Shown here: piece after piece, positions 22,982 through 26,801 of the stretch
Position numbering within the stretch: the stretch's first letter is position 1
Layout: every line of letters begins with the position of its first letter
Assembly (NCBI GenBank): GCA_025964325.1
Contig: JAOPZA010000103.1
Coordinates: forward strand, 1-32,882
DNA: 32,882 nucleotides
Direction of reading: 5' to 3'
Source of the DNA: Conexibacter sp.
Lineage (GTDB): Bacteria > Actinomycetota > Thermoleophilia > Solirubrobacterales > Solirubrobacteraceae
Position numbers and translations under genes: made by a program
Notes under the pieces: generated by a model
The model's input: the letters and a program-made list of their open reading frames with translations, nothing else
The model's database searches: none
Told to the model about the DNA's origin: nothing

Positions 22982-24523
22982 TCACGCTGAAGGCCTCCCC
23001 GCGGGAGGCCTTCCGTGTCTCCGGGGTCGTGGCTCTCGCGGCCGGGTGGCGGCGGGCGGCGTCGCGCGCGGCGCCGGCCGGAAGGCCGGCAGCTCGAAGG
23101 CGACGCGGGCGCCGCCCTCCGGCGAGGCGCCGGCCGAGATGCTGCCGCCGTGCGCGGCGACGATCGCGCGGGCGATCGCGAGCCCCAGCCCGGCGCCGCC
23201 CTGCCCGCGGGCGCGGGCGCTGTCCGTGCGGTGGAAGCGGTCGAAGATGCGATCCCGCTGCGCGGCCGGGATGCCGGGTCCGTCGTCCTCGATCGCGATC
23301 TCGACGCGCCCGTCGCGCGCCGCGACGGTGACACGCACGAGGCCGCCGGGGCCGGTGTGCTCGATCGCGTTGCGCGCGAGGTTGCGGACGACCTGCGCGA
23401 TCCGGTCCTCGTCGGCGATCAGCGTGCCGTCGGGCACCTCGCCGAGCTCGAAGGCGCGGTCGGCCGTCAGCGTGAGCGCGTCGAACAGCTCCGTCACGAA
23501 CGTCCGCAGGTCGAGCGCGGCGGGGCGCACGAGCTCCCCCTCGTCGGCGCGCGCGAGCAGCAGCAGGTCCTCGACCAGCCGCTCCATCCGCACCACCTCG
23601 GTGCGCACGACGGCGTTGACGCGGCCGACGTCCTCGCGCGTCACAGCCGGCTGGCGGGCCAGCACCTCGAGCTGGCCGCGGATCACCGTCAGCGGCGTGC
23701 GCAGCTCGTGCGAGGCGTCGGCGACGAACCCGCGCTGGCGCGCGAAGGCGTCCTCGAGCCGGTCGAGCATGCGGTCGAAGGCGTCCGCCAGCACGCGCAC
23801 CTCGTCCTGGGGGGCGGTCGAGCCGATCCGCTGGGAGAGGTCGCCGGCCGTCACGCGGGCGGCCGTGCCCGCCATCCGCCGCAGCGGACGCGAGAGGCGG
23901 CTCGCGAGCGCGAAGCCGAGCGCGATCGCGGCCAGCAGCGTCGCCGTGCCCGCGATCGCGAAGGTGCGCGCGACGCCGCTCTGCGCGCGCGCGACGGAGG
24001 CCGCCGACTCGCCGATCGCGATCGTCGCGACGCGGCGGCCGTTGCGGATCACGGGGACGACCGAGAGCCGCAGCGGCTCGCTGCCGAACCGCAGCGTCGA
24101 GAAGCCGGGCTGCGCCGTCCGCAGCGCGCGCGACTCGTCGCTCTCGCGCGGCGGCCCGGCGACGAGCCGCTCGGCACGCGTCGCGCCACTCGTCGGGCCG
24201 GCGATCCCCGGTTGATTCGTGACGATCCCGCCGCCGGCGATCCGGACGACGTAGAGGCGGGCGGTCGCGCCGAACGAGCTCTGCTGGTCGAGGTAGCTCT
24301 GCGCCGCGCGGGCGATCGCTCTCGGCTTCGCGGGATAGAACGGGATCTTGCTCTCGAACGAGGTCGCGTCCTGCCGCAGGTCGCCGTCGATCTGGTTGCG
24401 AACCTGCGTCCCCGTGCCGCGATAGGTCGCGACGAACGCGGTCCCGAGGGCGGCGACGAGGATCACCGCGATCGAGAGCGCGAGGCGGGCCCGCAGCCCG
24501 CGCCACCAGGGGCCCTCAGGCAC
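22982..24523 (-). CDS. membrane sensor histidine kinase
   Basis: A 513-residue kinase paired with the adjacent regulator. Layout: first membrane helix about 12-31, extracytoplasmic sensor about 32-186, second helix about 187-207, HAMP about 208-260, then HisKA with the phospho-accepting His at 272 (ASHELRTPL), and an HATPase domain with N-box NLARNAIEHT (381-390), G1 EDDGPGIP (412-419) and G2 GAGLGLAI (443-450). The C-terminal ~35 residues (PRATPPAATRPREPRPRRHG...) are basic, disordered, and run through the hairpin at 22990, so they may be dispensable. It starts at GTG 24523, 5 nt after the regulator stop, and is cotranscribed. The signal sensed is unknown. Confidence 0.93.
   Translation of the reverse strand: MPEGPWWRGLRARLALSIAVILVAALGTAFVATYRGTGTQVRNQIDGDLRQDATSFESKIPFYPAKPRAIARAAQSYLDQQSSFGATARLYVVRIAGGGIVTNQPGIAGPTSGATRAERLVAGPPRESDESRALRTAQPGFSTLRFGSEPLRLSVVPVIRNGRRVATIAIGESAASVARAQSGVARTFAIAGTATLLAAIALGFALASRLSRPLRRMAGTAARVTAGDLSQRIGSTAPQDEVRVLADAFDRMLDRLEDAFARQRGFVADASHELRTPLTVIRGQLEVLARQPAVTREDVGRVNAVVRTEVVRMERLVEDLLLLARADEGELVRPAALDLRTFVTELFDALTLTADRAFELGEVPDGTLIADEDRIAQVVRNLARNAIEHTGPGGLVRVTVAARDGRVEIAIEDDGPGIPAAQRDRIFDRFHRTDSARARGQGGAGLGLAIARAIVAAHGGSISAGASPEGGARVAFELPAFRPAPRATPPAATRPREPRPRRHGRPPAGRPSA
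22990..23012 (+). terminator. strong hairpin terminator between cold-shock and kinase genes
   Basis: AAGGCCTCCC-CGC-GGGAGGCCTT, a perfect 10-bp stem and 3-nt loop, then TTCCGTGTCT on the plus strand. It lies 25 nt after the cold-shock stop. The same stem is read by the opposing histidine kinase, whose last codons cross it. Confidence 0.75.
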
Positions 24524-24528
24524 CGTCC

Positions 24529-25203
24529 TCAGGCACGGGTCGTGAGGCGGTAGCCGACGGACCGCAGCGTGTCGATCGGCGCGGGACGCCCGGGCAGCTC
24601 GAGCTTGCGCCGCAGGTAGCGGATGTAGACCTCGACGACGTTCGTGCCCGGGTCGAAGTCGTAGCCCCAGACGGCGCTCAGGATCTGCTGCCGCGAGAGC
24701 GCCTGATCGGGATGGCGCAGGAAGTAGGCGAGCAGGTCGAACTCGCGCGCGGAGAGGCGCAGCTCGACGCCGTCGCGCTCGACCTTGCGGCTCAGCAGGT
24801 CGAGCTCGATGCCGGCGGCCGACAGCGTCGTCGCGTCGCGCTGGCGGGGCGTCCGCAGGTGCGCGCGCACGCGGGCGGCCAGCTCGTCGAACGAGAACGG
24901 CTTCGTGACGTAGTCGGTGGCCCCGCCGTCGAGCCCCGCGACGCGGTCGTCGACGGCGGCGCGCGCGCTCAGCATCACGACTGGCAGCTCCGGCTTGACG
25001 CGGCGGATCGCGGCGAGCACGGCGAGCCCGTCCTTGCCGGGGAGCATCACGTCGAGCACGACGAGGTCGACGTCGTCGTGCAGCGCGTGCTGCTCGCCCT
25101 CGATCCCGTCGGCCGCGCAGGTGACGGCGTGGCCCTCGGCCTGCAGGCCGCGCTGCACGAAGTCGGCGATCGCGGTCTCGTCCTCGATCACCAAGATTCG
25201 CAT
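24529..25203 (-). CDS. OmpR/PhoB-family response regulator
   Basis: A 224-residue two-component regulator. The receiver (1-117) has the acidic pair E7-D8, phospho-accepting Asp51 (LVVLDVMLPGKDG), the conserved Ser/Thr switch in MLSA (77-80) and Lys101 in TKPF. The effector is a winged helix (about 128-220; LSAREFDLLAYFLRHPDQALSR, then VVEVYIRYLRRKL, RSVGYRL). It is the partner of the kinase at 22982 and starts the operon. The ATG at 25203 is chosen over an in-frame GTG at 25209, because TACGAT ends 6 nt before the ATG (the GTG would lie inside the gap) and MRILVIEDE is the usual N-terminus. Confidence 0.95.
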   Translation of the reverse strand: MRILVIEDETAIADFVQRGLQAEGHAVTCAADGIEGEQHALHDDVDLVVLDVMLPGKDGLAVLAAIRRVKPELPVVMLSARAAVDDRVAGLDGGATDYVTKPFSFDELAARVRAHLRTPRQRDATTLSAAGIELDLLSRKVERDGVELRLSAREFDLLAYFLRHPDQALSRQQILSAVWGYDFDPGTNVVEVYIRYLRRKLELPGRPAPIDTLRSVGYRLTTRA

Positions 25204-25209
25204 CCGCAC

Positions 25210-25215
25210 ATCGTA
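25210..25215 (-). promoter_or_regulatory. -10 box for a probably leaderless two-component operon transcript
   Basis: TACGAT on the minus strand, 6 nt before the ATG at 25203. It implies that translation starts at the first transcribed codon. Confidence 0.5.
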
Positions 25216-25262
25216 GGTGAGCCGAGCGTCCGGCCCCTCGACGGCGACGTACTCCCCTGACT

Positions 25263-25285
25263 CTCACTCTCGAGTAGAGGGTGAG
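25263..25285. promoter_or_regulatory. imperfect dyad upstream of the response regulator
   Basis: CTCACTCTC (25263-25271) and GAGGGTGAG (25277-25285) pair with one T-G mismatch around GAGTA. It is 60-80 bp upstream of the regulator start and about 95 bp upstream of the riboswitch promoter, a plausible place for autoregulation or cross-control of the divergent cell-wall gene. The region 25286-25355 otherwise holds nothing that I recognise. Confidence 0.35.
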
Positions 25286-25355
25286 GGAGGGCGTTTGGCA
25301 AGTGCCCGACGATGCTGCGGGACAAACCGCTTCTGTGCGCCAGGAGAAGAATCGC

Positions 25356-25385
25356 TCGACATCCGGCCGGGAGCCCCGCTATTCT
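25356..25385 (+). promoter_or_regulatory. sigma-70-type promoter of the riboswitch/cell-wall hydrolase gene
   Basis: TCGACA (25356-25361), 18-nt spacer, TATTCT (25380-25385). This is the best bipartite promoter in the window. Transcription would start near 25392, just before the riboswitch. Confidence 0.55.
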
Positions 25386-25400
25386 GCCCGGCGTCGTACA

Positions 25401-25561
25401 AGACCCAGCCGAATCCCTGGCAACAAATGTCCAGGGAGCGGGGGAACCAGTGAGTCCGACCCAGGACTCTGGGGCGAATCGTCGTATCCACGCGACGTAG
25501 CGCTGCTCTTTCAGCGCGAGCCCGGCAGCTAACCCCGTAGGCGTTTGAAAGAGAAGGGGTT
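25401..25561 (+). ncRNA. cyclic di-AMP riboswitch (ydaO-yuaA type)
   Basis: The leader has the conserved ydaO/yuaA elements in order: GCCGAATCC (25408-25416), GGGGGAACCA (25440-25449), TGGGGCGAATC (25470-25480) and GGCAGCTAACCCCGTAGGCG (25524-25543), then GAGAAGGGG (25551-25559). Stems are visible: CCCTGG/CCAGGG (25415-25420 with 25431-25436), GAGTCC/GGACTC (25452-25457 with 25464-25469) and GCGCTG/CAGCGC (25500-25505 with 25512-25517). The family senses c-di-AMP and usually turns off cell-wall hydrolase or ion-transport genes when it binds. AACCCC at 25531-25536 can pair with GGGGTT at 25556-25561, which includes the ribosome site, so translational control is plausible. Confidence 0.85.
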
Positions 25562-25566
25562 GCACC

Positions 25567-26622
25567 TTGTCGTTCTTCACCGCGTCGGCCTTCAAGCGAT
25601 CGTCTGCGATCGTCATCGCGCTGTTCGCCGTCGCGCTCGCCCCCTCCGCCGCCCTCGCCGCCAGCGCGCACCTCGGTGATCGCACGCTGAAGCAGGGAAT
25701 GGCTGGGCATGACGTCCGCGTCCTCCAGGACTTCCTCACGCGGGCCGGATTCAAGACACCGATCGCCGGCCAGTTCGGGCCGCAGACGCTGGCGAACGTG
25801 AAGCGCTTCCAGAAGGGCGCGAAGCTCACGGCCAACGGCGTCGTCGACGCCAACGTCGCGACCGCCCTCCGCACCGCCGGCGGCGCGCCGGCCGCGAGCA
25901 GCAAGACCACGGTCTCGAGCAAGACGACGCGCTCCACCAAGGGCGGCTCCCAGCACCTCGGCGACCGCGCCTTGAAGAGCGGCGCGAGCGGGCACGACGT
26001 GCGGGTGCTCCAGTCCTACCTCACGAAGGCCGGCTTCGCCACGCCGATCGACGGCAGCTTCGGCTCGGGCACGCTGAGGAGCGTCAAGAGCTTCCAGACG
26101 GCGAACGGGCTGTCGACGGACGGCGTCGTCAACGACGAGGTCGTCTTCGCGCTGCGCCGCGTCGTCGACGGCGGCGCCGCCACCGACACGACGCCGGTCT
26201 CGGCACCCGCACCCGCGGGCGGCAAGGCGACGCTCAACCCCGACGGCACGGCCAACGCGCCGGCCGACGCCCCGCCTGAGATCAAGGCCGTGATCGCGGC
26301 CGGCAACAAGATCGCCAGCACGCCGTACGTCTGGGGCGGCGGACACGGCCAGTGGAACGACACCGGCTACGACTGCTCCGGCTCGGTCTCCTACGCGCTC
26401 CACGGCGGCGGCCTGCTCGACCAGTCGATGGACTCCGGCACGCTCGAGTCCTACGGTGCCGCCGGCAAGGGCACGTGGATCACGATCTGGGCCAACGCCG
26501 GCCACACCTACATGTCCGTCGCGGGACTCCGCTTCGACACGAGCGGCGCGAACCCGTCCCGCTGGCAGACCGACACGCGGTCCGGCAGCGGCTACGTCGT
26601 GCGTCACCCGAAGGGTTTCTAG
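25567..26622 (+). CDS. secreted peptidoglycan-binding, NlpC/P60-like hydrolase
   Basis: A 351-residue exported cell-wall enzyme. A signal peptide (1-33, ending ALAAS) precedes two tandem PG_binding_1 domains (about 42-103 and 137-199; each with GHDVRVLQ and the IxGxFGxxT pattern), joined by a Ser/Thr/Lys linker. The C-terminal NlpC/P60-like domain (about 238-351) has the catalytic Cys at 270 in TGYDCSGSVSYAL and the His at 313 in NAGHTYM. It should cleave peptide stems in peptidoglycan. The start is a TTG at 25567 with AAGGGG 7 nt upstream; no ATG or GTG lies suitably. The c-di-AMP riboswitch in its leader fits the known link of this messenger with wall turnover. Confidence 0.92.
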   Translation: MSFFTASAFKRSSAIVIALFAVALAPSAALAASAHLGDRTLKQGMAGHDVRVLQDFLTRAGFKTPIAGQFGPQTLANVKRFQKGAKLTANGVVDANVATALRTAGGAPAASSKTTVSSKTTRSTKGGSQHLGDRALKSGASGHDVRVLQSYLTKAGFATPIDGSFGSGTLRSVKSFQTANGLSTDGVVNDEVVFALRRVVDGGAATDTTPVSAPAPAGGKATLNPDGTANAPADAPPEIKAVIAAGNKIASTPYVWGGGHGQWNDTGYDCSGSVSYALHGGGLLDQSMDSGTLESYGAAGKGTWITIWANAGHTYMSVAGLRFDTSGANPSRWQTDTRSGSGYVVRHPKGF

Positions 26623-26701
26623 GCGCTCGCCTGGGGCGAGCGCTCGGGAGTTCGCCTGGCGGGCGCTCGCCTGCGGCGAGCACTTGGGAGTTCGCCTGGC
26701 G
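26622..26701. repeat. tandem 40-bp repeat, two copies, hairpin-forming
   Basis: Copies at 26622-26661 and 26662-26701 differ at 3 positions. Each begins with a hairpin; the first, GCGCTCGCC-TGG-GGCGAGCGC (26623-26643), is perfect, the second is shortened to 7 bp by a substitution. They start at the hydrolase stop codon. Confidence 0.7.
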
Positions 26702-26711
26702 GCGAACTCCC
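26686..26711 (+). terminator. 11-bp hairpin after the cell-wall hydrolase
   Basis: GGGAGTTCGCC-TGGC-GGCGAACTCCC, perfect 11-bp stem and 4-nt loop, the strongest of the hairpins here; probable terminator without a T-run. Confidence 0.6.
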
Positions 26712-26729
26712 GGGCCTCGCCTGACTGGT

Positions 26730-26756
26730 GATCCGCGGGCCGTGGGCTCGCGGATC
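26730..26756. repeat. inverted repeat before the acyl-CoA dehydrogenase
   Basis: GATCCGCGGGCC (26730-26741), loop GTG, GGCTCGCGGATC (26745-26756), 12-bp stem with one G-T pair. It is 46 bp upstream of the -10 box and could be a terminator or a dimeric repressor site for the next gene. Confidence 0.45.
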
Positions 26757-26801
26757 CGCCAGTTGTGCGGGGAACTGCCGTGGCGGTCGCGGGGGCGGCG
26801 C

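What the first reader, a model, noticed from the sequence alone, without database searches (positions are those of the whole stretch)
25356..25567. c-di-AMP riboswitch controlling a secreted peptidoglycan hydrolase with a TTG start
The leader carries the ydaO/yuaA elements in correct order (GCCGAATCC, GGGGGAACCA, TGGGGCGAATC, GGCAGCTAACCCCGTAGGCG) plus three clear stems. It sits between a TCGACA-N18-TATTCT promoter and a TTG start. Because AACCCC (25531-25536) can pair with GGGGTT (25556-25561), which holds the ribosome site, control may be translational. The gene has two PG_binding_1 domains and an NlpC/P60-like domain, the classical actinobacterial target class.
Basis: partly seen in the sequence, partly recalled or inferred. 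Interest (0 to 1): 0.75.

Follow-up and report, generated by a model that had tools for sequence, protein, structure and literature searches.

The report
c-di-AMP riboswitch before cell-wall enzyme
The RNA leader of a secreted cell-wall-cutting enzyme is, by sequence and structure, a c-di-AMP riboswitch, one of seven in this actinobacterial genome, and it most likely works by hiding or exposing the ribosome-binding site; this is a well-known kind of switch, with one unusual alternative pairing found mainly in its closest relatives.

Summary
Rfam RF00379 (c-di-AMP/ydaO riboswitch) matches 25397-25558 (+) at 88.4 bits (cut-off 38), end to end. The TCGACA-N18-TATTCT promoter is conserved in relatives, and a TTG start follows 8 nt after the match. 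The gene encodes a secreted protein with two PG_binding_1 repeats and an NlpC/P60-fold domain. The genome holds seven such riboswitches, the six others mostly before peptidoglycan hydrolases, plus a diadenylate cyclase domain.

What I add is the expression platform. The aptamer's loop-tail pseudoknot (25506-25512 with 25547-25553) covaries strongly over 167 riboswitches and sits on the ribosome-binding site. Start codons lie about 21-24 nt after the aptamer's closing helix, leaving no room for a terminator, so control is most likely translational. By analogy with Corynebacterium nlpC, c-di-AMP most likely turns expression OFF.

It is strong in this genus, present in many family orthologues, lost in some, and scarce in the other riboswitches. 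It would favour an ON switch, because ligand binding would free the ribosome site; direction is therefore open. This is a new member of a known kind. No binding, transcript or expression data exist here.

The parts
25356..25385 (+). promoter: -35 TCGACA (25356-25361), 18-nt spacer, -10 TATTCT (25380-25385); inferred transcription start about 25391-25393
   Evidence: only promoter-like site in the region; conserved as (T/A)CGACAT...TANNNT in relatives; start point is inference
25397..25558 (+). c-di-AMP riboswitch aptamer (RF00379, ydaO/yuaA leader)
   Evidence: cmscan 88.4 bits, gathering score 38, E 1.4e-19, full-length match
25438..25443 (+). 5' strand GCGGGG of the core helix, pairs with CCCCGT 25533-25538
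   Evidence: Rfam structure line; minimum-energy fold
25506..25512 (+). CTCTTTC, loop strand of the loop-tail pseudoknot (hairpin 25500-25517)
   Evidence: covaries with 25547-25553: mean 6.41 of 7 Watson-Crick pairs against 5.73 (sd 0.04) with swapped tails, 167 riboswitches
25547..25553 (+). GAAAGAG, tail strand of the pseudoknot, overlapping the 5' edge of the ribosome-binding site by 2 nt
25531..25536 (+). AACCCC, partly 3' strand of the core helix; can instead pair with GGGGTT 25556-25561
25552..25561 (+). ribosome-binding site AGAAGGGG (25552-25559) and the GGGGTT (25556-25561) complementary to AACCCC
25567..26622 (+). riboswitch-controlled gene, TTG start, 351 aa: signal-like N terminus, two PG_binding_1 repeats, C-terminal NlpC/P60-fold domain
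   Evidence: ORF; Pfam; AlphaFold model and Foldseek; alignment with invariant C270 and H313

Best explanation
25397-25558 is a class RF00379 c-di-AMP riboswitch in the leader of a secreted NlpC/P60-type peptidoglycan hydrolase gene (shown by covariance model). It acts on translation (inferred): the aptamer runs directly into the ribosome-binding site with no terminator between. When c-di-AMP folds the aptamer, the loop-tail pseudoknot 25506-25512/25547-25553 is locked against the ribosome site and blocks initiation at the TTG, so the switch is most likely OFF (inferred by analogy with Corynebacterium glutamicum nlpC). In this genus the ribosome site also carries a second, competing partner, the strand AACCCC, which adds a ligand-free sequestered state and may tune, weaken or invert the response. 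The switch belongs to a seven-member c-di-AMP regulon aimed mostly at cell-wall hydrolases.
For: RF00379 hit at 88.4 bits. Seven such riboswitches in the genome and at least one in all 60 relatives searched. Over 167 unique riboswitches the pseudoknot pairs 6.41 of 7 against 5.73 +/- 0.04 after swapping tails, with compensatory changes at all seven positions. Median distance from the aptamer's closing helix to the start codon is 21-24 nt, and from the pseudoknot end to the start codon 10-13 nt; the best anti-SD match overlaps the pseudoknot strand in 135 of 149. No terminator-like site. The same layout appears in other actinobacterial groups, in one case with a GGAGGT tail strand (L241). C. 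glutamicum nlpC: reporter falls with c-di-AMP at unchanged transcript level, and the authors suggest a CTCC/GGAG pseudoknot at the RBS (PMC9960051). Diadenylate cyclase domain PF02457 in the genome; two DHH-family proteins, of which a c-di-AMP phosphodiesterase could be one, also present. Downstream genes in the regulon are mostly PG_binding, M23, lytic transglycosylase, Rpf-like and NlpC-like.
Against: In the window RNA the pseudoknot takes only 2 nt of the ribosome site; the GGGG core stays single-stranded, so full occlusion is not certain. The AACCCC/GGGGTT alternative (-13.5 kcal/mol duplex) is mutually exclusive with the ligand-binding core and would favour expression with ligand. A local hairpin GAAAGAGAAGG/CCTTGTCGTTC (25547-25557/25565-25575) can also mask the start site regardless of ligand. 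In Streptomyces rpfA the related switch was reported to act by premature transcription termination (PMC10117811). No binding or expression data here.
Confidence: 0.6

Rival explanations
1. ON switch: without c-di-AMP the strand CAGCUAACCCC pairs with GGGGUU(GC) and buries the ribosome site; ligand binding draws the strand into the aptamer core and frees the site, so c-di-AMP activates the hydrolase. This is the direction implied by the first reader's pairing.
For: Exact 6-bp complementarity. Duplex -13.5 kcal/mol in the window and most genus members against a shuffle mean of about -5.8 (fraction of shuffles as good 0.01 or less). 24 of 32 window-type orthologues reach -8 kcal/mol or better against 16 of 135 other riboswitches. 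All 12 cases with 6 uninterrupted pairs are window-type orthologues. Without ligand or pseudoknot, the alternative fold scores slightly better than the enforced native outer helices (-80.7 against -78.2).
Against: Conservation is partial: lost in genus g8, weak in g25. The AACCCC strand is nearly invariant in the aptamer, so no compensatory test is possible. When the G-run is held fixed, the extension is only marginally better than shuffled in the genus (fraction about 0.04-0.14) and at chance in several genera. All tested c-di-AMP riboswitches known to me are OFF. The pseudoknot still flanks the ribosome site.
Confidence: 0.25
2. Transcriptional attenuation: the ligand-stabilised aptamer causes early termination without a classical U-tract, as reported for Streptomyces rpfA.
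For: Related switch reported to terminate transcription (PMC10117811).
Against: No terminator-like site in 25200-26800; 8 nt between aptamer match and start codon; conserved short spacing across relatives.
Confidence: 0.12
3. A relic or non-responsive aptamer whose leader simply carries a masked ribosome site.
For: A local hairpin alone can mask the start region.
Against: All ligand-core motifs intact and high-scoring; aptamer conserved in orthologues over the family.
Confidence: 0.03

Closest known systems
c-di-AMP (ydaO/yuaA/kimA) riboswitch, Rfam RF00379
   Same: Full-length covariance-model match; same core helices and ligand-core motifs; the loop-tail complementarity is also visible in the crystallised ydaO RNA of PDB 4QLM (sequence printed in PMC5393176).
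   Different: No intrinsic terminator; aptamer abuts the ribosome site; extra clade-specific AACCCC/GGGGTT pairing.
Corynebacterium glutamicum nlpC riboswitch (PMC9960051)
   Same: Actinobacterial, NlpC/P60 target, no terminator, proposed translational control with a pseudoknot at the RBS.
   Different: A different class of the phylum; there OFF was shown with reporters, here nothing is measured. In the window the pseudoknot strand is GAAAGAG beside an AAGGGG site rather than GGAG itself.
Streptomyces rpfA and related ydaO-like riboswitches (PMC10117811)
   Same: Six or seven copies per genome before cell-wall hydrolases; [quoted passage not shown]
   Different: rpfA is reported to act on transcription; target genes are other hydrolases.

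Membership tests
RF00379 c-di-AMP riboswitch | covariance-model score above the curated cut-off | tested here: met
   88.4 bits against 38, model 1-134
RF00379 c-di-AMP riboswitch | conserved ligand-core motifs and closing helices | tested here: met
RF00379 c-di-AMP riboswitch | loop-tail pseudoknot | tested here: met
   7 of 7 pairs in the window; covariation over 167 RNAs
RF00379 c-di-AMP riboswitch | leader position, same strand, directly upstream of a gene | tested here: met
RF00379 c-di-AMP riboswitch | selective binding of c-di-AMP | not testable with these tools
   needs in-line probing or ITC
RF00379 c-di-AMP riboswitch | ligand-producing enzyme in the genome (supporting, not defining) | tested here: met
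   PF02457 DAC domain, 98.5 bits
Terminator-type ydaO switch (Bacillus subtilis) | intrinsic terminator between aptamer and gene | tested here: not met
   none found; no room before the start codon
NlpC/P60 (PF00877) | Pfam score above cut-off | tested here: not met
   19.7 bits against 23, domain alone
NlpC/P60 fold | papain-like NlpC/P60 fold | tested here: met
   model mostly above pLDDT 90 in the domain; Foldseek to 7cfl and 8er5, target-normalised TM 0.63-0.67
NlpC/P60 fold | catalytic Cys and His | tested here: met
   DCSG Cys270 and His313 invariant in 35 homologues
NlpC/P60 fold | peptidoglycan endopeptidase activity | not testable with these tools
   needs an enzyme assay

The most novel reading that the evidence does not exclude
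Within one genome's c-di-AMP regulon this leader, and its orthologues in the genus and some sister genera, has an inverted or two-input platform: the strand AACCCC hides the ribosome site without ligand, so c-di-AMP turns this hydrolase ON while its sister riboswitches, in which the site overlaps the pseudoknot, are turned OFF.
Probability: 0.22. Interest if true: 0.6.

Novelty: new member of a known kind. Interest (0 to 1): 0.33.

Why it matters
It extends the c-di-AMP control of cell-wall hydrolases to the Solirubrobacterales branch of Actinomycetota. The comparison gives evolutionary evidence, suggested so far (in what I could read) from one reporter study, that actinobacterial c-di-AMP riboswitches use their own pseudoknot at the ribosome site as the expression platform. 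If the AACCCC/GGGGTT state is functional, it would be a simple test bed for an opposite-direction c-di-AMP riboswitch.

Tried and rejected
Intrinsic terminator between aptamer and gene: none found. AACCCC/GGGGTT as the general platform: rejected, because only 16 of 135 other riboswitches show a comparable duplex and their mean (-4.1) equals the shuffle mean (-4.0). Simple energy folding to decide direction: inconclusive, since native, alternative and unconstrained folds lie within about 3 kcal/mol and ligand and pseudoknot cannot be modelled. Three ydaO structure papers and the papers by Nelson et al. and by St-Onge and Elliot were not held, so what they say on the pseudoknot is known here only through other papers. 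A scan of named genomes gave one orthologue, a Solirubrobacterales MAG. A first pseudoknot test with a badly placed loop window was replaced.

Full report
Check of the observation. Scanning the whole 32,882-base window against Rfam 15 at curated cut-offs returns one match: RF00379, the c-di-AMP (ydaO/yuaA) riboswitch, 25397-25558 on the + strand, 88.4 bits (cut-off 38), E 1.4e-19, covering the model from first to last position. The TCGACA-N18-TATTCT pair is the only promoter-like site of the region; shuffles give none, and no terminator-like site is present. In leaders of same-genus orthologues the pair recurs as (T/A)CGACAT and TANNNT while neighbouring sequence diverges. The transcript therefore most likely starts near 25391-25393 (inference), just upstream of the aptamer.

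The gene. The 351-codon ORF 25567-26622 starts with TTG, 8 nt after the aptamer match. It has a signal-like N terminus (read from the sequence) and two PG_binding_1 repeats (96.3 bits). Its C-terminal domain falls just short of the Pfam NLPC_P60 cut-off (19.7 against 23). The AlphaFold model is confident there and matches solved NlpC/P60 domains (7cfl, 8er5; target-normalised TM 0.63-0.67). Cys270 in DCSG and His313 are invariant among 35 homologues. It is best called a secreted NlpC/P60-fold peptidoglycan hydrolase candidate; activity is untested.

A regulon, not a lone element. The genome carries seven RF00379 elements, and every one of the 60 relatives searched has at least one, up to twelve. 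Downstream of the other six in this genome are an NlpC-like protein, an Rpf-like transglycosylase, a triple PG_binding protein with an NlpC-like end, two DPBB lytic transglycosylases, and one small protein without a Pfam match. Among 129 downstream proteins, from this genome and its relatives, the common domains are PG_binding_1 (45), Peptidase_M23 (25), DPBB_1 (10) and Transglycosylas (6). A diadenylate cyclase domain is present, and two DHH-family proteins, whose substrates are not known here. This is the same picture as in Streptomyces, with six or seven ydaO-like switches before wall hydrolases (PMC10117811).

The expression platform. The hairpin 25500-25517 exposes CTCTTTC (25506-25512), complementary to GAAAGAG (25547-25553) in the tail. 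Over 167 unique riboswitches the seven positions form 6.41 Watson-Crick pairs on average; swapping tails among RNAs gives 5.73 (sd 0.04, 300 swaps, largest 5.86), and each of the seven positions shows compensated changes. The swap test does not correct for relatedness, but the changes occur across many genera. The same loop-tail complementarity is visible in the crystallised RNA of PDB 4QLM (sequence printed in PMC5393176), so this pseudoknot is part of the known aptamer. What the comparison adds is its position. The start codon lies a median of 21-24 nt after the closing helix and 10-13 nt after the pseudoknot, and the best anti-SD match overlaps the pseudoknot strand in 135 of 149 RNAs. The overlap count is partly automatic, because the strand is purine-rich and a generic anti-SD was used; the short fixed spacing is the cleaner fact. 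The layout recurs in other actinobacterial groups, including one RNA whose tail strand is GGAGGT itself (L241), while some others (for example L222, L224, L243) have distant start codons instead. In C. glutamicum the nlpC riboswitch lowers reporter protein but not transcript when c-di-AMP rises, and its authors suggest a CTCC/GGAG pseudoknot at the RBS (PMC9960051). Translational OFF control by the aptamer's own pseudoknot is therefore the best-supported reading for the class in this phylum.

It is exact, and it is mutually exclusive with the core helix GCGGGG/CCCCGT, with which it shares four C residues. Six uninterrupted pairs are found in 12 of 141 riboswitches, all of them window-type orthologues. 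Duplex energies between the core strand and the ribosome-site region average -9.9 kcal/mol in 32 window-type orthologues (24 at -8 or better) and -4.1 in 135 others (16 at -8 or better), the latter equal to their shuffle mean. In the genus the duplex reaches -13.5 (fraction of shuffles as good 0.01 or less). In genus g8 it is lost, and when the G-run is held fixed the extension beyond it is only marginally better than chance. The strand AACCCC is nearly invariant because of its place in the aptamer, so covariation cannot be asked of it. Folding without ligand or pseudoknot puts the alternative at -80.7, the enforced native outer helices at -78.2, and the unconstrained minimum at -81.4. A local hairpin 25547-25557/25565-25575 offers a third masked state. 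I give that about 0.25.

Verdict. The finding is right in class, place and target, and probably right on translational control. It is a new member of a known kind with a conserved local twist in its platform. Steps shown: aptamer class, pseudoknot covariation, spacing, regulon content, predicted fold of the enzyme domain. Steps inferred: transcription start, ligand binding, translational mechanism, direction.

Limits. The order is inferred from one named near relative, a Solirubrobacterales MAG at 69% protein identity.

Noticed in passing
L002:1240-1494 (-); L018, L022, L027, L095, L106, L122, L127, L162, L167, L177, L179: Relatives place c-di-AMP riboswitches before small proteins ending in RPDRIALWA plus a single membrane span; L122 has no Pfam hit. 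The same motif precedes the lytic transglycosylase-like part in L125 and L138. The own-genome small protein L002 (85 aa) also has no Pfam hit but did not match the motif pattern. Function unknown.
   Followed up: partly
window 22982-25209 (-): A divergent OmpR-type response regulator (24529-25209) and an apparent sensor kinase lie next to the riboswitch gene. The regulator is found close beside the orthologue only in the nearest relative (L038/L252, 96% identical), while the downstream acyl-CoA dehydrogenase gene is a more widely kept neighbour.
   Followed up: partly
L222, L224, L226, L228, L243: Some Actinomycetota riboswitches of the same class have start codons roughly 90-280 nt away, a different platform from the pseudoknot-at-RBS layout.
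   Followed up: no
L199, L200, L204, L205, L207 (genus g14): Leaders of window-type orthologues read GGGGGTTCCCC at the ribosome site, so the site could also fold back on itself.
   Followed up: no
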